The notes under the pieces: generated by a model
Database searches by the model: none
What the model was told of the DNA's origin: nothing
What the model saw: the letters and a program-made list of their open reading frames with translations, nothing else
Made by a program: the position numbers and the translations under genes
In this document: one piece after another, positions 501-15,128 of the stretch
Layout: every line of letters starts with the position of its first letter
How positions within the stretch are numbered: position 1 is the first letter of the stretch
Assembly (NCBI GenBank): GCA_016193385.1
Contig: JACPSF010000125.1
Location: 1-18,505, forward strand
Direction: 5' to 3'
DNA: 18,505 bases
Source: Deltaproteobacteria bacterium
GTDB lineage: Bacteria; Desulfobacterota_B; Binatia; UBA9968

Positions 501-743
501 ATGAAGGCTGTTAAGGTTGAGCCTAACGGGTCCATTAGGCTTCCAAAAGAGATTTTAAATCTCTTCCCGAGGAGGAGCGAGTTGGCGGTGTGGACGGAAG
601 GAGACATGATCGTCCTCAAACGCCTGAGGCCTCTGAGGCCTTCCCAGATAGCCGAGAGGGTTCCCGAAAAGGAGATGCCCCTCAAAGAAATTGCCGCGGA
701 GGTCCACCACATGCGCCGGGAGAAGCGGAGCAGGCGTGGCTAA
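501..743 (+). CDS. AbrB/SpoVT-like antitoxin of a PIN toxin pair
   Basis: This 80-residue protein fits an AbrB/MazE-fold antitoxin. Its N-terminal half (about 1-45) has the swapped-hairpin signature NGSIRLPKEI followed by VWTEGDMIVLKRL. The basic tail with MPLKEIAAEVHHMR (about 58-72) is the kind of segment that binds and blocks the toxin. The start is well set by a strong Shine-Dalgarno (GGAGGTGAT, 489-497). The stop overlaps the GTG start of the PIN gene by 8 nt, so the two are probably translationally coupled. Antitoxins of this family bind their own promoter and, with the toxin, repress the operon; no operator was identified here. Confidence 0.8.
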   Translation: MKAVKVEPNGSIRLPKEILNLFPRRSELAVWTEGDMIVLKRLRPLRPSQIAERVPEKEMPLKEIAAEVHHMRREKRSRRG

Positions 744-1170
744 GGTCCGGCTGGTGCTGGATTCTAACGTCTGGATTTCGGGGCTCCTATGGACAGGCAT
801 TCCCCACCAGATTATTCGAGGAGCTGAAGCCGGTGATTTTGTGCCAGTTACGATTCCCGCGATCATGGATGAGGTCCGTGAAGCGCTGTCGCGCCCCAAA
901 TTCGCGCCGAGGATTGCAGCCTTGAACACTTCAGTGGGCGAGTTGATGGAGTCTCTGCTGAGTATCGTTGAGGTCATTCACGAACCCAGGTTGGAGCCGG
1001 TGATTCCGCAGGACCCAGACGATGATAAGATTCTGGCTTGCGCTGTTGCCTCACGGGCCCAATGGATCGTGTCGGGAGATAACCATCTGCTAGCGCTGAG
1101 GCGGTATAGGGGGATTCCCATCGTGACGCCAAAACAGTTCTGGAACGCATGGGCTAGGAGGTCGAGGTGA
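736..1170 (+). CDS. PIN-domain toxin, putative RNase of a type II toxin-antitoxin pair
   Basis: This 144-residue PIN-fold protein resembles the family annotated as 'putative toxin-antitoxin system toxin component, PIN family'. All four acidic residues expected of an active site are visible: D9 in LVLDSNVWISGLL, E46 in MDEVREAL, D97 in DPDDDK, and D115 in VSGDNHLL. It should therefore be able to bind Mg2+ and cut RNA. I chose GTG at 736 rather than ATG at 691, because the 691 start adds 15 residues that merely overlap the antitoxin and precede the usual KVRLVLDSN opening. The neighbouring AbrB-like gene is the expected partner. Target RNA is unknown. Confidence 0.85.
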   Translation: MAKVRLVLDSNVWISGLLWTGIPHQIIRGAEAGDFVPVTIPAIMDEVREALSRPKFAPRIAALNTSVGELMESLLSIVEVIHEPRLEPVIPQDPDDDKILACAVASRAQWIVSGDNHLLALRRYRGIPIVTPKQFWNAWARRSR

Positions 1171-1573: not shown

Positions 1574-1674
1574 AGCGTGGTAAGGCGAATATCTGGGACA
1601 TCCCACCGTTTCGAGGGGAGATACCGGTCGGCTTTCCTGCCAGTGGGTTAATTAAGGATGCAGTTCGTCCATAA
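1570..1674 (+). CDS. Small ORF coupled to the HsdS remnant and the SIR2 gene
   Basis: This 34-codon frame begins MKRGKANIWDIPPFRGEIPV. It starts in an ATGA overlap with the HsdS stop, has a purine-rich GGGGGAG about 8 nt upstream, and runs 17 nt into the SIR2 gene. I recognise no family. It may be the truncated head of a former operon member, or a leader that couples translation into the SIR2 gene, whose own start has only a poorly placed AAGG. Either role is inference. Confidence 0.25.
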   Translation: MKRGKANIWDIPPFRGEIPVGFPASGLIKDAVRP

Positions 1675-3076
1675 CGGCCCCGACATTCCGGATCGCCTGT
1701 TAGAGGCGCACGAAGATGGTCGCGTCGTGTTTTTCTGCGGCGCGGGAATCTCCTATCCGGCCGGCTTGCCGGGGTTTCGCGAGCTCGTCAAGGCACTCTA
1801 CGAACGCTTGGTTTGGTCACCGTCCAGCATTGAGGAAACGGCCATTGCAAAGGGCGAGTACGACACAGCCATAGGCTTGCTCGAAAACAAAATCGTTGGC
1901 GGAAGGGAAAAAGTAAGACGGGAACTGGCCGGAATTCTGACCGCGGATCTTTCCAAGCCCAAGGCCACAGTGACCCATGAAGCGTTGCTGACACTCTCGC
2001 TCAATCGTAAAGGCCGCTACCGAATTGTCACGACCAACTTTGACCGGATTTTCGAGCACGTCATCGATCGGAAAAATCTCGCGCTTGAGCGCTTCAAGGC
2101 GCCTTTGCTGCCTGTACCGAAGAATCGCTGGGACGGGGTGGTCTATCTACACGGGCTGTTGCCCGAGACTCCGACGGACAGCGAATTGGATCGGCTAGTG
2201 GTATCCAGCGGTGACTTTGGTCTTGCGTATCTCACGGAGCGCTGGGCGGCACGGTTCGTGAGCGAGCTGTTCCGCAACTACGCGGTGTGTTTTGTCGGTT
2301 ACAGCCTCAATGACCCCGTGCTGCGCTACATGATGGATGCACTCGCTGCCGATCGCCTCCTGGGCGAGTCGCCAATTCAGACATATGCCTTTGCTAGTTA
2401 CTCCAAAGGCAAAGAAGTGGAGGCTTCCAACGAGTGGAAAGCAAAGAACGTCACGCCGATCCTCTACCGGCAATCTAGGCGACACCGGCACCTTCACGCC
2501 ACACTACACGAATGGGCTGCTACATATCGGGACGGTATCTCCGGCAAGGAGAGTCTCGTCGTTCGGTACGCCGCCACTCCGCCGATGCAGAGCACGCGAG
2601 AGGACGACTATGTCGGCCGTGTGTTGTGGGCGCTGGCCGACCGCAGCGGTATCCCGGCGAAGCGCTTTGCCGAACTCGAACCGCCACCGTCGCTCGACTG
2701 GCTGGAATCGCTTACGGAAAAGCGGTTCAACCAAGAAGACTTGGCGCGGTTCGGTGTAGCGCCCGAAAGCAACAAAGACGATGTACTCGCCTTCAGCTTC
2801 GCGTTTCGTCCTACGCCCTACACTTTAGCACCGTGGAGCGCGCTTGTAAGTAGTGGTCCCACCGAAAGTCGCTGGGATAACGTAATGGTCCAACTAGCTC
2901 GCTGGCTGACGAAACACCTTGATAATCCTAAGTTGTTGCTCTGGGTAGCGAACCATGGAGGTGCGCTGCATTCAAATTTTGCGCGGCTCATTCGCGATGC
3001 ACTCAACGAGAAACCGCCACCGACGGCTATACAAACTCTATGGCGCTTGGTGCTCGGGGGGCATGTCCGTGCTTGA
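1658..3076 (+). CDS. SIR2-family protein, N-terminal part of a frame-split gene
   Basis: The first ~270 residues form a SIR2-like NAD-binding domain: VVFFCGAGISYPAGLPGF at residues 23-40, TTNFDRIF around N127 and D129, LHG with candidate catalytic His H165, then FVGYSLNDPVLRYMM. Bacterial SIR2 proteins of this kind are linked to anti-phage defence by NAD+ breakdown. The ATG at 1658 fits the family opening (MxFxxxGPxIPDxLLEA), although the Shine-Dalgarno is nearly fused to the start. The frame ends abruptly at 3076. A long open frame covers the rest of the locus in another register with no ribosome binding site, so this is probably one large SIR2 protein, perhaps of the SIR2/DUF4020 type, broken near 3056-3095. 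Residual activity cannot be judged. Confidence 0.8.
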   Translation: MQFVHNGPDIPDRLLEAHEDGRVVFFCGAGISYPAGLPGFRELVKALYERLVWSPSSIEETAIAKGEYDTAIGLLENKIVGGREKVRRELAGILTADLSKPKATVTHEALLTLSLNRKGRYRIVTTNFDRIFEHVIDRKNLALERFKAPLLPVPKNRWDGVVYLHGLLPETPTDSELDRLVVSSGDFGLAYLTERWAARFVSELFRNYAVCFVGYSLNDPVLRYMMDALAADRLLGESPIQTYAFASYSKGKEVEASNEWKAKNVTPILYRQSRRHRHLHATLHEWAATYRDGISGKESLVVRYAATPPMQSTREDDYVGRVLWALADRSGIPAKRFAELEPPPSLDWLESLTEKRFNQEDLARFGVAPESNKDDVLAFSFAFRPTPYTLAPWSALVSSGPTESRWDNVMVQLARWLTKHLDNPKLLLWVANHGGALHSNFARLIRDALNEKPPPTAIQTLWRLVLGGHVRA

Positions 3077-5067
3077 TCTCAACAGACCACGTGCATGCCA
3101 CGCTTGAGGAAATCAAGCAGGACGGGCAAGGACGCGAGGCTTTGCCTCAATTGCTGTCCGATGCCACGAGCCTGCTACACGACACACTCGATCTAATGGC
3201 CGAACTGGGCGGTGCGAATTCCGACAGCGATTTGTCCTACGTCTATCAGCCGTCTATCAGCAGACACCCGCAAAACCGAGATTTCCGTGACTGGACTGCC
3301 CTGATCGACCTCGCCCGCGATGCGTGGGTAGCAACGGTTGAAAAATTTCCGGAACGAGCACGGCTCGAAGCCGAGCACTGGTTCCAAATTGCCTATCCAC
3401 TATTTCGGCGCCTTGCGTTCTTTGCCGCAACCCATTACGACATCGTCCCACCACGCCAAGCGCTTGACTGGTTGCTCTCAGACGATCACAGGTGGCTATG
3501 GTCAATTGAAACTCAGCGTGAGTGTTTCCGTCTGCTAACTGCTATTGCTTCTCGATTGGATAGACAGGATCGTGAACGGCTGGAGCGTGCCATCCTCCAA
3601 GGCCCACCCCGAGAACTGTATAGAGACGACGTTGAGCCCCAGCATCTGCGGTACATCTTTGATCGTGAACTTTGGCTGCGCCTGGCCAAGTACCAGCGGG
3701 CTGGCGCGCAACTCGGTACTGATGCTGCCGCGCGGTTGGAAGAGTTGTCTGCGCAGCAGCCCCAGTGGCAGTTGGCAGAGGATGAACGGGACGAGTTTCC
3801 GATGTGGATGGGTGAAGCAGATGAATGGCGAAGCTTCCTCGCCACGCCCAAGCGTTATCGCGAGCTAGTGAGTTGGTTGAGGGAGCATCCGGTTAGTGAC
3901 TTCCGGAAAGGAGACGACTGGCGTGACCGCTGTAAGCGGGATTTTCGGAAAGCTGTGTCGGCTCTGATTCGTCTTGCGCGAGGTGGCGAATGGCCAGTCG
4001 AGCGGTGGCGAGAAGCCTTGCAAGTTTGGGCTGACGAAAAGCTTCTCAAGCGATCGTGGCGGTGTGTAGGGCCGGTACTGAGCGATGCGCCGAACGAGGT
4101 CCTTCAGTCACTCGCCCACACGCTCGGCTGGTGGATGCAATCACTCGCGAAGACCTTCGAAGGCCACGAGACCGTATTCTTCAACCTCATTCGCCGCATT
4201 CTTTCACTTGACTATGAAGGCGGTGTCAGGGTGGATGATCCTGTGTCAACGGCCATCAACCACCCGGTCGGACATGTGACCGAAGCCGCATTGCGTTGGT
4301 GGTACCGACGATCATTGGAAGATGGTCAGGGACTGCCGCATCAGGTTAAGCCCCTATTCACTGAGCTATGTGACACGCAGATGGCAAAATTCAGGCACGG
4401 CCGCGTACTCTTGGCTGCGCACGTGATCGCCTTATTTCGCGTGGATCGTGATTGGGCCGTGCAATACCTTTTAACCTTATTCGATTGGCAGCGGTCGGCC
4501 ATCGAAGCGTGCGCCGTGTGGAGAGGGTTCCTCTGGTCGGCGCGATTGTACGGGCCGTTATTGCAAGCCATCAAGCCACACTTTCTTGCCACGGCACAAC
4601 ATTATGGGGAAATCCGCGACCATGGCCGACAATACGCAGCCTTATTGACTTTCGCCGCTCTTGAGCGAGGAGATACGTTTTCTAAGTCTGAGATGGCCAC
4701 CGCAACACGTTCACTGCCGATAGAAGGCCTGCAGCGGACGGCGCAAACGCTGGTTCAGGCGTTGGGGAGCGCCGGGGATCAGCGGGCCGAATACTGGCAC
4801 AATCGTATCAAGCCATACATTCACGACATTTGGCCGAAATCTCAGGAAGTCAGGACCACGGCGATCGCCGAACAGTTCGCCCGTCTCTGTATCGCTGCGG
4901 GCGAAGCATTCCCAGACGCCTTGAAAGAACTGCAGGCATGGTTGCAGCCGCTCCAGCATCCCGACTTGATCGTGCATTCGCTGCATGAAGCCTCGCTGTC
5001 TGCCCAGTACCCTGAAGAGTCGCTCGCTCAAAAACTTCAAGATTATATCCGGAGGTTCAGTACTTAG
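3040..5067 (+). CDS. C-terminal part of the split SIR2-family protein (DUF4020-like, tentative)
   Basis: This frame carries about 660 residues of Trp- and Arg-rich, mostly helical-looking sequence without catalytic motifs I can name. It lies in the -1 register relative to the SIR2 frame and overlaps it by 37 nt. The nominal ATG at 3040 has no Shine-Dalgarno, and its first ~15 residues are out-of-frame SIR2 sequence, so it is probably not a genuine start. Joined to the upstream part it would give a protein of about 1,136 residues, a usual size for large SIR2 defence proteins with a C-terminal sensing or regulatory region. The DUF4020 name is from memory of proteins with this SIR2 opening and is not proved here. 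The frame stays open for 2 kb, so decay, if real, is recent, or the break is a sequencing or assembly error. Confidence 0.6.
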   Translation: MALGARGACPCLISTDHVHATLEEIKQDGQGREALPQLLSDATSLLHDTLDLMAELGGANSDSDLSYVYQPSISRHPQNRDFRDWTALIDLARDAWVATVEKFPERARLEAEHWFQIAYPLFRRLAFFAATHYDIVPPRQALDWLLSDDHRWLWSIETQRECFRLLTAIASRLDRQDRERLERAILQGPPRELYRDDVEPQHLRYIFDRELWLRLAKYQRAGAQLGTDAAARLEELSAQQPQWQLAEDERDEFPMWMGEADEWRSFLATPKRYRELVSWLREHPVSDFRKGDDWRDRCKRDFRKAVSALIRLARGGEWPVERWREALQVWADEKLLKRSWRCVGPVLSDAPNEVLQSLAHTLGWWMQSLAKTFEGHETVFFNLIRRILSLDYEGGVRVDDPVSTAINHPVGHVTEAALRWWYRRSLEDGQGLPHQVKPLFTELCDTQMAKFRHGRVLLAAHVIALFRVDRDWAVQYLLTLFDWQRSAIEACAVWRGFLWSARLYGPLLQAIKPHFLATAQHYGEIRDHGRQYAALLTFAALERGDTFSKSEMATATRSLPIEGLQRTAQTLVQALGSAGDQRAEYWHNRIKPYIHDIWPKSQEVRTTAIAEQFARLCIAAGEAFPDALKELQAWLQPLQHPDLIVHSLHEASLSAQYPEESLAQKLQDYIRRFST

Positions 5068-12132: not shown

Positions 12133-12161
12133 TTGATTTCTGGCCTTTTAGGGGGTATGAT
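12133..12161 (+). promoter_or_regulatory. Sigma70-type promoter of the oxygenase cluster
   Basis: TTGATT (12133-12138) and TATGAT (12156-12161) are separated by exactly 17 nt, close to the sigma70 consensus. The predicted start is near 12168, about 39 nt ahead of the oxygenase ATG. No other equally good promoter is seen within the following three genes. Confidence 0.6.
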
Positions 12162-12178
12162 TCTAACGATCGTTCGAA
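12161..12178. promoter_or_regulatory. 18-bp palindrome over the predicted transcription start, probable repressor operator
   Basis: TTCTAACGATCGTTCGAA has a perfect 10-bp core (AACGATCGTT, 12165-12174) and matching TTC/GAA ends, with a single mismatched pair. It begins at the last base of the -10 box and covers the predicted start, where a bound protein would block RNA polymerase. The size and form suit TetR-family operators; no regulator gene is in the window. Confidence 0.5.
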
Positions 12179-12206
12179 CAAATCAAAAGTTGAAAGAGAG
12201 GGCGAG

Positions 12207-13307
12207 ATGAAGAAAATATCCACATTTGATGACTGGATTGACTGTTTCCGCGAGTGGCAGAAGGATATCGGTTACGACCCTGCCCTTCTCGCCGACTATA
12301 AGTTCGAAACCAAGCTTGCCGAGCTCCATTCCTCGGAGATAGAGTTTGGAGACTTCCGCGGGCGGGCCAAATGGGAGCGTGTGGAGCAGATCCCCAATCA
12401 GTCCATCCGCGACGCCCTGCTCAACCTGATCGTTTATCAGGGGGATACGGAATTCGCCTCCGTGGAGCAGCAAAAAAACCTGCTGGACACAGCCCCGACG
12501 GAATATGATCGCCAAGCAATCATCCGTGTCAACAGCGATGAAATGCGCCACGGGTGGCAGATGTGCTATCTTCTGGTGCAATATTTTGGCGACTCGGGCA
12601 AACTGGAAGCGCGGAAGCTTCTGGAGCGCCGTGCCAATCAGGGCAGCCGGCTTTTGGGGTCTTTCAATCAGCCGGTCAACAATTGGCTCGACTTTTTCAC
12701 CTACACCCAGTTCGTGGATCGCGACGGGAAGTTCCAGCTCACCATGCTGACTCATTCCTCCTTTGCTCCGTTGGCGCAAAGCGTTGCCGCCATGCTCAAG
12801 GAAGAGTTCTTCCACATGTTCACCGGCAATACGGGGCTGACCCGGATTCTTAAGTCGGGCAAGATTCCAACACCGATTATCCAGAAGTATTTCAACAAAT
12901 GGCTTTCGACCGCGTATGATCTTTTTGGCACGGACCACTCCTCTTCGGCTCAGTGGGCTTATGTCTGGGGCTTGAAGGGGCGTTACGACGAGCACGAGGC
13001 GAAGGACGACGCAGACAAGGGACGGCTGAACGAGCTTTCGCGGGTTCAGTACTTCAACGAATGCCAGCGGTTGGTAGACGAACTGAACAAACTCATCCCG
13101 AAGGATCAGCCGAAGCTGGGGATCCCCGACCTCAAGTTCCGCCGGGCCATCGGGGATTATGCCGGGAAGCCTTACAGCATCGAGGGCAAATTACTAACGG
13201 AACAAGAATACGCAAAGTATTTAGCCGAAGTCCTGCCTGGTCCCGAAGACGAAAGGATCTTGGGCGAGATCTTCAGAGCAAAAGACTGGGTAGTGCAGAT
13301 GAATTGA
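12207..13307 (+). CDS. BoxB-like diiron oxygenase (PaaA/PaaC/BoxB superfamily)
   Basis: This 366-residue ferritin-like diiron protein closely recalls benzoyl-CoA 2,3-epoxidase BoxB: SDEMRHGWQMCYLLVQYFG, LLGSFNQPVNNWLDFFTYTQ, FVDRDGKFQLTML, SSAQWAYVWGLKGRYDEHEA. Two ExxH iron motifs are intact (E112-H115 and E200-H203), and E82 or E87 can serve as a bridging or terminal ligand. BoxB itself is about 470 residues, so this is roughly 100 shorter. BoxB and PaaA oxidise aromatic CoA thioesters with O2 to epoxides; the substrate here is unknown. ATG at 12207 has a good Shine-Dalgarno (GAGAGGG, 12196-12202); an earlier GTG frame from 12105 runs through the promoter and is not credible. It is followed 46 nt later by ferredoxin and NuoF-like genes, its likely electron donors. 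Confidence 0.85.
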   Translation: MKKISTFDDWIDCFREWQKDIGYDPALLADYKFETKLAELHSSEIEFGDFRGRAKWERVEQIPNQSIRDALLNLIVYQGDTEFASVEQQKNLLDTAPTEYDRQAIIRVNSDEMRHGWQMCYLLVQYFGDSGKLEARKLLERRANQGSRLLGSFNQPVNNWLDFFTYTQFVDRDGKFQLTMLTHSSFAPLAQSVAAMLKEEFFHMFTGNTGLTRILKSGKIPTPIIQKYFNKWLSTAYDLFGTDHSSSAQWAYVWGLKGRYDEHEAKDDADKGRLNELSRVQYFNECQRLVDELNKLIPKDQPKLGIPDLKFRRAIGDYAGKPYSIEGKLLTEQEYAKYLAEVLPGPEDERILGEIFRAKDWVVQMN

Positions 13308-13353
13308 TGCGTCCCGAGACGATCCGAAGCTTGTTTGCCGCAAGGAGAGGCGA

Positions 13354-13677
13354 GTGAAGCGGATCTGCCTGGTCTGTCAGAACGTCGACTGTAAAAACCG
13401 CGGCTCCGAGGAGATCATCAAGGAGCTGCAAAAACGGGTTGCGGAGAAGGGTCTCAACGATCTGGAGGTCCGGCCTTATATGTGCTTCGGGGCTTGCCAG
13501 GAAGGTCCCAACATTGTCCTTTATCCGGAAAAGAGCTGGTATGCCGGCGTCAAGAAGGAGGACTTGGATGAAATCCTGGCCCATGTGGCGGGGGGGCCTG
13601 AGGTGAAAAGACTCGATACCATCGATTCCTCTCTGAAAGAGCTCATCTATCAACTTTTGGATACGGGGGTTTTCTAA
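13354..13677 (+). CDS. Thioredoxin-like [2Fe-2S] ferredoxin (NuoE-type)
   Basis: This 107-residue protein has four Cys spaced as in NuoE and thioredoxin-fold ferredoxins: C8-x4-C13-x30-C44-x3-C48 (VCQNVDCKNRG and MCFGACQEGPN). C5 is an extra. A C-terminal tail of ~30 residues (about 78-107, PEVKRLDTIDSSLKELIYQL) follows the domain. GTG at 13354 has a strong Shine-Dalgarno (AAGGAGAGG, 13342-13350). The stop is directly followed by the GTG of the NuoF-like gene, so they are co-translated. In complex I-type diaphorases this module passes electrons on from FMN; here it is likely to feed the diiron oxygenase, which is inference from position. Confidence 0.85.
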   Translation: MKRICLVCQNVDCKNRGSEEIIKELQKRVAEKGLNDLEVRPYMCFGACQEGPNIVLYPEKSWYAGVKKEDLDEILAHVAGGPEVKRLDTIDSSLKELIYQLLDTGVF

Positions 13678-14943
13678 GTGCTGGAGGGCGTCCTTTTCCC
13701 ACGAGGCGTCGTGGAGAGGAGAGAGAGCCTGAGAGAGTACCGTGCCCGGGGCGGCTACGGTGCTTTGGAGAAAGCTCTGCGCGAGCTTTCCCCCAATCAG
13801 GTGCTGCGGGAGGTCGTCGATTCGGGTCTGCGGGGTAGAGGCGGCGCAGGGTTTCCCACAGGGCAAAAGTGGGCTTTTACCGCCGAAACTGCCGAGCAAC
13901 CCCACTACGTCGTTCTCAACGGAGGAGAGGATGAGCCGGGAAGCAAGAAGGATCGTCTCCTCATGGAGAACCTTCCCCACCTGGTGATCGAGGGAGTTAT
14001 CCTAGCTTCATACGCGGCGAGCGCTTCCAAAGCATTCCTGTATATTAACAGCGCCTATCAAGAGGCCACGAAAAGCATGGCCGATGCCCTAGTGGAAGCG
14101 AGGGAGGCAGGATACTGGGGAGAGCGCATTCTCGGGACGGATTTTAACCTGGAGATTCTCTTCACCTCGGCCCCGCCCAACTATGTCGCCGGGGAGGATA
14201 CAGCCGCCCTTGAGGTCATCGAGAACAAGCAACCCCTGCCGCGGCAAAAGCCGCCTTATCCGGCTACTGCGGGGCTTTTTGGCAAGCCCACGGTGGTCAA
14301 CAATGTGGAGACTCTTGCCAATGTTCCGCCCATCGTGGCTCGAGGGGCGAGGTGGTATCGGTCTATCGGCACCCCGGGGAGTCCCGGCACGATGATTTTT
14401 TCCTTGGGTGATGAAGTGAGCCGGCCGGGGATTTACGAGCTTTCTTTCGGGACGCCGCTACGGTTTTTAATCGAGGAATGTAGTGGGGGAATGAGAGACG
14501 GAGGCGTCATCAAGGCCATTCTCCCGGGAGGCCCTTCATCGGCCTTTCTGCCGCCCGACAAAATTGATGTCGCTCTGGATCACGACTCTTTGCGGGCGGC
14601 AGGCTCTTCGATCGGCTGCGGCGTGGTTCGCTTGGTTAACGAGCGTGATTGTATGGTGGAGGAAACGCTCCGGATCGCTGAGTTTTTTGCCGCCGAGTCC
14701 TGCGGTCAGTGTCCCGCCTGTCGCATGGAGACGAACATGTTAGCGACGATGTTGAAGAAAGTGCAGCAGGGGCAGGGGGGAGCGCCGATTTTAGAGCAGT
14801 TCCATAAAGTGATCGAGTTCAACCGGGGCAAGGGCTTCTGCAACCTTAGCCATATGCCCGGGCCTCCCATCGAGAGCGCGCTCAGGCTCTACCGCTCTGA
14901 TTTTGAGTTTCATCTCGCAAACGGTCACTGCCCCCTAGGCTAA
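13678..14943 (+). CDS. NuoF-like NADH:acceptor flavoprotein (FMN, 4Fe-4S)
   Basis: This 421-residue protein resembles NuoF/HoxF diaphorases. GLRGRGGAGFPTGQKW (about 50-65) is the NAD/FMN glycine-rich loop. NGGEDEPGSKKDRLLMEN stands where NuoF usually has NADEGEPGTFKDR, keeping acidic FMN/NADH residues but with altered flanks. Then come the PPNYVAGEDTAALEVIE and KPTVVNNVETLANV stretches, and the 4Fe-4S ligands C342, C345, C348 (CGQCPACR) and C388 (GFCNLS). It should oxidise NADH and reduce the ferredoxin encoded just before it. It starts at GTG directly after that stop, so coupling is likely. No other complex I or hydrogenase gene is present, so a respiratory role is less likely than a stand-alone reductase. 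Confidence 0.85.
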   Translation: MLEGVLFPRGVVERRESLREYRARGGYGALEKALRELSPNQVLREVVDSGLRGRGGAGFPTGQKWAFTAETAEQPHYVVLNGGEDEPGSKKDRLLMENLPHLVIEGVILASYAASASKAFLYINSAYQEATKSMADALVEAREAGYWGERILGTDFNLEILFTSAPPNYVAGEDTAALEVIENKQPLPRQKPPYPATAGLFGKPTVVNNVETLANVPPIVARGARWYRSIGTPGSPGTMIFSLGDEVSRPGIYELSFGTPLRFLIEECSGGMRDGGVIKAILPGGPSSAFLPPDKIDVALDHDSLRAAGSSIGCGVVRLVNERDCMVEETLRIAEFFAAESCGQCPACRMETNMLATMLKKVQQGQGGAPILEQFHKVIEFNRGKGFCNLSHMPGPPIESALRLYRSDFEFHLANGHCPLG

Positions 14944-15128
14944 TTCAAATTCAGATATTTTCTCACAACGTTAAATACCTTTCCGTCCGATTTTTTGATC
15001 AGGCACGCCTCGTTTTTCCATTCCTTGAGAACCTGGACTTCCTCTCCCGGGGCGAAGGAGATCTCCTCGACCGGCGCGCTTTTGCTTCCTTGATACTTGG
15101 CCGTAAACGCTTCTTTCACCGTTGCCAT
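14940..15128 (-). CDS. Small SH3-like protein convergent with the NuoF-like gene
   Basis: This is a 62-residue acidic/basic mixed protein. Its central part (SFAPGEEVQVLKEWKNEACL, then IKKSDGKVFNVVRKYLNL) has the strand pattern of a small SH3-like barrel: 'GExVxVLxxW' followed by a short turn and 'V...YL'. A strong Shine-Dalgarno (GGAGGGA on the minus strand, near 15134-15140) supports the start. Its stop overlaps the NuoF-like stop by 4 nt on the opposite strand. I know no function for it; SH3-like domains of this size often serve as protein-binding parts. Its link to the oxygenase cluster is only positional. Confidence 0.65.
   Translation of the reverse strand: MATVKEAFTAKYQGSKSAPVEEISFAPGEEVQVLKEWKNEACLIKKSDGKVFNVVRKYLNLN

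What the first reader, a model, noticed from the sequence alone, without database searches (positions are those of the whole stretch)
12133..15128. BoxB-like oxygenase wired to NuoE/NuoF-type NADH modules
Seen: a short BoxB-like protein with both ExxH motifs, then a thioredoxin-like 2Fe-2S ferredoxin and a NuoF-like FMN/4Fe-4S protein, with no BoxA, PaaE or other Rieske/plant-type reductase. Known: BoxB is paired with the flavoprotein BoxA, and PaaA complexes with PaaE. Inference: this is a self-contained NADH-to-diiron oxygenase with a complex I-like diaphorase as reductase. The protein is also ~100 residues shorter than BoxB, so the substrate may not be benzoyl-CoA.
Basis: partly seen in the sequence, partly recalled or inferred. 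Interest (0 to 1): 0.8.

Follow-up and report, generated by a model that had tools for sequence, protein, structure and literature searches.

The report
Ring epoxidase with complex-I-like reductase
A bacterium encodes a short cousin of the enzyme that attacks the ring of benzoyl-CoA with oxygen, next to a two-protein electron supply that resembles parts of respiratory complex I; the pairing recurs in distant bacteria and awaits a laboratory test.

The parts
12207..13307 (+). OX: short BoxB-like diiron epoxidase, 366 aa
12438..12461 (+). Q78-G-D-T81-E82-F-A-S85: diiron ligand E82 (BoxB E120) and the counterparts of BoxB benzoyl contacts Q116, T119, S123
12540..12551 (+). first ExxH: E112, H115 (BoxB E150, H153)
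12693..12719 (+). F163 to D171 (BoxB F203 to D211); holds the swaps F206->Y166 and T210->V170
12804..12815 (+). second ExxH: E200, H203 (BoxB E240, H243)
12133..12161 (+). promoter-like match 45 bases upstream of the OX start (consensus only, 9 of 12)
13354..13677 (+). FD: thioredoxin-like 2Fe-2S ferredoxin, 107 aa; presumed ligands C8-x4-C13 and C44-x3-C48, invariant in the 10 aligned
13678..14943 (+). NF: NuoF-like NAD(H)/FMN/SLBB/4Fe-4S protein, 421 aa
13918..13941 (+). NF signature NGGEDEPG (the 11 NuoF-like controls: NADExEPG or NADEGDPG)
14701..14721 (+). NF 4Fe-4S motif C342-G-Q-C345-P-A-C348, followed by RMET (controls: CxxCxPCR); presumed fourth Cys C388 at 14839-14841
14940..15128 (-). 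62-aa conserved protein on the other strand, inside the interval but not part of the proposed chain

Best explanation
OX is a BoxB-like diiron epoxidase that uses O2 to epoxidise an aryl-CoA ring, most likely benzoyl-CoA or a close analogue. FD and NF are its reductase: NADH gives a hydride to FMN on NF, single electrons pass through the NF 4Fe-4S cluster to the 2Fe-2S cluster of FD, and FD reduces the diiron site. In distant relatives downstream steps are probably done by the about 260-aa enoyl-CoA hydratases and the aldehyde dehydrogenases encoded beside the triad, in place of BoxC and BoxD; in the window's own lineage the triad stands without them. Shown by computation: the genes, fold, diiron ligands, mostly conserved pocket, conserved order, co-occurrence, and no BoxA or BoxC over cut-off in the genomes tested. 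Inferred: electron direction, NADH as donor, FD-OX docking, epoxide as product, benzoyl-CoA as substrate.
For: Fold: AlphaFold model pLDDT 95, full-length match to BoxB. Active site: six diiron ligands and Q116, T119, S123, F193 of BoxB invariant in 25 close and 63 distant OX rows (a few are second copies of one locus), against H, S, G at Q116, T119, S123 in E. coli PaaA. Order. OX, FD, NF in a row in L051, L079, L107, L132, L133; divergent form in L027 and L131. Association: in 297 genomes of the phylum of the nearest held genome, NF-type in 3 and strong OX in the same 3; in a second phylum, searched from the NF side, 6 of 396 genomes, NF within 5 kb of OX in 5, in a hydratase operon in the sixth; 3 of the 6 were new to me and all 3 lie beside OX. 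Only the best 4-6 first-look candidates per genome were scored in those scans. Among 47 other OX genomes the 9 with FD are the 9 with NF. NF is one clade, 100/100. BoxA over cut-off 0 of 39 and 0 of 47, positive control 682 bits. Pathway: a BoxR-like gene cluster in 6 of 61 distant loci (one member tested: NF006015 307 bits, cut-off 204), 4-hydroxybenzoyl-CoA reductase alpha in L073 (1034.5, cut-off 994.55).
Against: 38 of 47 genomes with a distant OX have neither FD nor NF, so the OX family does not need this pair. Of the 9 with both, NF lies beside OX in 4; in 4 an FD lies beside or near OX but NF elsewhere; in G049 neither is beside OX. Five sister genomes lost OX but keep FD and NF with dN/dS about 0.03-0.17 among themselves. 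G024 has FD-NF and no OX in its assembly, 81% complete; G033 has a distant OX and neither FD nor NF-type. Lack of BoxA is less telling than it looks: G036 (100% complete) has canonical BoxB and BoxC but no BoxA over cut-off either; G034's contig ends just after BoxB. The window's lineage has no hydratase or ALDH cluster near the triad, so its substrate rests on the pocket and on relatives. F206Y and T210V/I may shift specificity. No complex was modelled; no wet data.
Confidence: 0.7

Rival explanations
1. FD-NF is a general NADH:ferredoxin oxidoreductase that serves several enzymes, among them OX paralogues in trans; its place beside OX is convenient but not exclusive.
For: FD-NF kept under purifying selection after loss of the adjacent OX in five genomes, all of which keep a distant OX elsewhere; FD-NF without any OX found in G024; NF away from OX in 5 of 9 genomes; eight relatives carry a second FD copy at 60-69% identity.
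Against: In even samples of two phyla all 9 genomes with NF-type also have an OX, and the 3 newly found NF cases lie beside OX.
Confidence: 0.4
2. OX acts on another aryl-CoA or a non-aromatic acyl-CoA, not on benzoyl-CoA.
For: F206->Y and T210->V/I in nearly all OX; no BoxC over cut-off in the 25 OX genomes tested; OX scores 245 bits against the BoxB cut-off of 499; window lineage without hydratase or ALDH near the triad.
Against: Q116, T119, S123, F193 invariant and F203 nearly so; a BoxR-like regulator and 4-hydroxybenzoyl-CoA reductase beside some relatives.
Confidence: 0.35
3. OX is an ordinary BoxB whose BoxA is encoded elsewhere; FD-NF is a bystander.
For: Automatic names in some databases call OX relatives benzoyl-CoA 2,3-dioxygenase component B. 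A genome with canonical BoxB also lacks a BoxA over cut-off (G036), so a divergent BoxA could be missed.
Against: BoxA over cut-off 0 of 39 and 0 of 47, with a positive control; recurrent OX-FD-NF order.
Confidence: 0.05
4. The pair and OX form an NADH oxidase or O2-scavenging system, without productive epoxidation.
For: Nothing direct; uncoupled diiron enzymes can do this (recalled).
Against: Conserved substrate contacts and acyl-CoA catabolic neighbours in distant relatives.
Confidence: 0.04

Closest known systems
[quoted passage not shown]
   Different: OX about 107 residues shorter, under half the TIGR03225 cut-off, no BoxA or BoxC over cut-off in the OX genomes tested; NF-FD in place of BoxA, which PMC4498308 (passages) describes as NADPH- and FAD-specific with two 4Fe-4S clusters
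Phenylacetyl-CoA epoxidase PaaABCE
   Same: PF05138 superfamily; in distant relatives the same kind of neighbours (hydratases, ALDH)
NuoE/NuoF of complex I and HydB-type hydrogenase modules
   Same: FMN, SLBB and 4Fe-4S domains of NF; thioredoxin-like 2Fe-2S FD
   Different: NF clade apart from 9 NuoF-like controls (100/100), own signatures, no complex I or hydrogenase gene seen beside it
Class II benzoyl-CoA reductase BamG/BamH (recalled, not tested)
   Same: A NuoE/NuoF-like pair supplying a benzoyl-CoA enzyme (recalled)
   Different: Anaerobic ring reduction in a large complex (recalled); no sequence comparison was made here

Membership tests
BoxB (TIGR03225) | score over the curated equivalog cut-off (499.1 bits) | tested here: not met
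   245.1 bits for the window OX; 217-248 bits for the four distant OX scanned
BoxB (TIGR03225) | BoxB fold over the full length | tested here: met
BoxB (TIGR03225) | diiron ligands E120, E150, H153, D211, E240, H243 | tested here: met
   all six, invariant in 88 OX rows
BoxB (TIGR03225) | benzoyl contacts Q116, T119, S123, F193, F203, F206, T210 (the paper names F203 in one place and F206 in another; both counted) | tested here: inconclusive
   window OX keeps five of seven; F206->Y, T210->V
BoxB (TIGR03225) | BoxA as reductase | tested here: not met
   0 of 39 relatives and 0 of 47 distant OX genomes over cut-off; control 682 bits; but G036 with canonical BoxB also has none
BoxB (TIGR03225) | BoxC as next enzyme | tested here: not met
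   over cut-off in 3 of 28 genomes or records, all three with canonical BoxB; 0 of 25 OX genomes
BoxB (TIGR03225) | converts benzoyl-CoA | not testable with these tools
   needs an enzyme assay
PaaA (TIGR02156) | score over curated cut-off (280 bits) | tested here: not met
   47.7 bits
NuoF (TIGR01959) | score over curated cut-off (558.65 bits) | tested here: not met
   435 bits
NuoF (TIGR01959) | part of a complex I gene cluster | tested here: not met
   no other nuo genes seen beside NF in the window or in the FD-NF loci read
NuoE (TIGR01958) | score over cut-off, with the N-terminal part | tested here: not met
   34.7 bits against 142.4; only profile positions 72-146 of 148 matched

The most novel reading that the evidence does not exclude
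A second, BoxA-independent line of aerobic aryl-CoA epoxidases exists in several bacterial phyla, in which a NuoF-type diaphorase and a thioredoxin-like ferredoxin became the reductase of a diiron oxygenase, a reductase type that my paper searches showed for no oxygenase. The reductase module is linked with different epoxidase lineages and can serve one encoded elsewhere in the genome.
Probability: 0.5. Interest if true: 0.75.

Novelty: new variant of a known kind. Interest (0 to 1): 0.62.

Why it matters
If true, it adds a class of reductase for diiron oxygenases, shows that NuoE/NuoF-type parts can feed an oxygenase as well as respiration, and gives uncultured bacteria known from metagenomes an oxygen-dependent route into aromatic acids that searches for boxA or boxC would miss. 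The three genes are short and of families whose members are usually soluble (recalled), so the claim can be tested directly.

Tried and rejected
BoxA elsewhere in the genome: none over cut-off, with the G036 caveat. BoxC as the next enzyme: not over cut-off in 25 OX genomes. 'Shorter, so another substrate': weakened, since the missing residues are loops and tails and the pocket is mostly kept. FD-NF as a complex I or hydrogenase fragment: not seen in the loci read. L056 and L093 carry NuoEF-fused genes downstream of OX that group with NuoF-like controls beside formate-dehydrogenase-like genes (named by eye); they are not counted as NF. Tree with PaaA/PaaC: BoxB falls inside the OX radiation (95/83), but branches are long, and the tree without them shows OX and BoxB as two sides of one branch; no ancestry is claimed. 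The FD-NF link needs at least 6 changes on that second tree, which is poorly resolved. Radical SAM and PtsP genes upstream: found in 11 and 16 of 19 close loci, but absent from L005 and L006, which have long contigs and keep the triad, so not taken as part of the system. Plasmid search with FD: 60 records, all under 60% identity, the ten listed 33-39%. Paper searches that showed no work joining a BoxB-type epoxidase with a NuoF-type reductase, seen as listings only: (15 of 534 listed); passages were seen of PMC5489048, PMC4498308, PMC9973337 and PMC12844201, the last of which holds BoxB and NuoF in unrelated statements. Most subscription papers and preprints are not in that library. Not tested: PaaE-like reductases genome-wide, FD-OX docking, NADH against NADPH preference.
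Full report
What is there. The window carries three adjoining + strand genes: OX (12207-13307), FD (13354-13677) and NF (13678-14943). OX matches PF05138 and, below the cut-off, BoxB (245 of 499 bits). FD matches the thioredoxin-like 2Fe-2S family and the solved ferredoxin 1F37 (E 5e-12). NF has the FMN, SLBB and 4Fe-4S domains of NuoF, and its best solved relatives are HydB and NuoF. The PtsP gene ends 108 bases before OX; a promoter-like match lies at 12133-12161 (consensus only; 8 promoter-like sites in the 3.5 kb scanned where shuffles give 1.5). A 62-aa gene on the - strand follows NF.

The order is conserved. The search for related loci returned the best 80 of 269 relatives. Of the window and 19 close loci (75-96% identity), 19 have FD downstream on the same strand; the other contig ends 6 bases after OX. 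NF follows FD in all 18 where the contig goes on (in L017 the two hits overlap slightly). Of 62 distant OX genes (55-65%; 61 and L107, which was found through FD), 6 have FD directly downstream, and 3 of these then NF (L051, L079, L107). L027 has NF-FD-hydratase divergent from OX, and L039 has an FD nearby.

Test from the NF side. In the second phylum (that of the genome of L079) 6 of 396 genomes hold NF-type proteins. Three were already known (L079, L027, and L111 with L039). The three new ones are L131 (hydratase-NF-FD-hydratase divergent from OX, with ALDH and a PaaK-type ligase-like gene, 255 bits against a cut-off of 700), L132 (TetR-ALDH-ALDH-hydratase-OX-FD-NF, another hydratase further on) and L133 (ALDH-hydratase-OX-FD-NF-PaaC-like) (some of these names rest on clustering alone). 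In the phylum of the nearest held genome G001 (297 genomes) NF-type is in 3 and strong OX in the same 3, all three already known; a fourth genome has a weaker OX match (230 bits) that I did not classify. In these scans only the best 4-6 first-look candidates per genome were scored. Among 47 genomes with a distant OX, FD is in 9 (118-175 bits, next best 75) and NF in the same 9 (562-752 bits, next best 457); these limits were set after seeing the gap. In those 9, NF lies beside OX in 4 (G040, G046, G062, G085); in 4 (G053, G054, G059, G069) an FD lies beside or near OX and NF elsewhere; in G049 neither is beside OX.

NF is its own subfamily. Twelve NF proteins form one clade (100/100) apart from 9 NuoF-like proteins, seven of which sit beside other complex I genes by eye. 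All 12 read NGGEDEPG and CPxCxMET where the 11 other NuoF-like rows read NADExEPG or NADEGDPG, and CxPCR. FD keeps four cysteines in all 10 aligned rows.

Pathway context. Among 61 distant loci, the hydratase cluster occurs in 30, ALDH in 17, GlpC-like iron-sulfur proteins in 14, the BoxR-like cluster in 6; the 19 close loci have none of these. Representatives were named: BoxR-like L048 307 bits over 204; 4-hydroxybenzoyl-CoA reductase alpha in L073 1034.5 over 994.55; GlpC-like L030 310 over 278. The four hydratases scanned stay under every cut-off listed; their best models are generic enoyl-CoA hydratase (two), alternative oxepin-CoA hydrolase (one) and cyclohexadienecarbonyl-CoA hydratase (one). 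BoxA: 0 of 39 and 0 of 47 over cut-off, control 682 bits. BoxC: 3 of 28, all with canonical BoxB. Caveat: G036, with canonical BoxB and BoxC and rated 100% complete, has no BoxA over cut-off either.

Evidence against exclusivity. In G025, G026, G028, G029 and G031 the OX gene is deleted except for C-terminal remnants (within residues 309-366), while flanks, FD and NF remain. FD and NF evolve with dN/dS 0.03-0.15 and 0.09-0.16 among the four with like breakpoints. All five keep a distant OX elsewhere, the simplest client for FD-NF. G024 (81% complete) has FD-NF and no OX found; G033 has a distant OX and neither FD nor NF-type. And 38 of 47 distant OX genomes lack FD-NF, so their electron donor is unknown.

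Verdict. The sequence shows a BoxB-like epoxidase with a NuoEF-type electron supply, recurrent and, for FD and NF, under purifying selection in the five genomes measured. It works like BoxAB; by the tests it is not a BoxB equivalog. PMC4498308 (passages) describes BoxA as an NADPH- and FAD-specific reductase with two 4Fe-4S clusters and BoxC as needed to relieve product inhibition, so a system without both must solve these steps otherwise. Electron transfer, donor and substrate remain inferred.

Noticed in passing
window 1658-5067 (+): A Dsr1-like defence sirtuin gene lies split over two overlapping frames: 1658-3076 matches profile 1-455 and 3040-5067 matches 566-1227 of PDLC02183.
   Followed up: partly
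window 691-1170 (+): PIN_3 domain protein after a short ORF at 588-740; may be a toxin-antitoxin pair.
   Followed up: no
window 14940-15128 (-): 62-aa protein without Pfam match, in a cluster of 16 copies, mostly just after NF on the other strand.
   Followed up: partly
L087-L091: Internal deletion of OX with FD-NF retained in five sister genomes: a natural deletion experiment.
   Followed up: yes
L066 7174-13434: OX followed by a second PaaC-like protein and what look like cytochrome oxidase subunits (the latter by eye); a PaaC-like protein also follows NF in L133.
   Followed up: no
L065, L073 and 9 more distant loci: A uracil-DNA-glycosylase-like gene (one member tested by Pfam) recurs inside or beside the OX/hydratase operons (11 loci).
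   Followed up: no
G004, G007, G009, G011, G014, G016, G017, G019: Second FD copies (60-69% identity); not beside NF or OX in those read in full (output was cut for two, G016 was not fetched).
   Followed up: partly
G036: Canonical BoxB and BoxC in a genome rated complete, with no BoxA over cut-off; its reductase is an open question.
   Followed up: no
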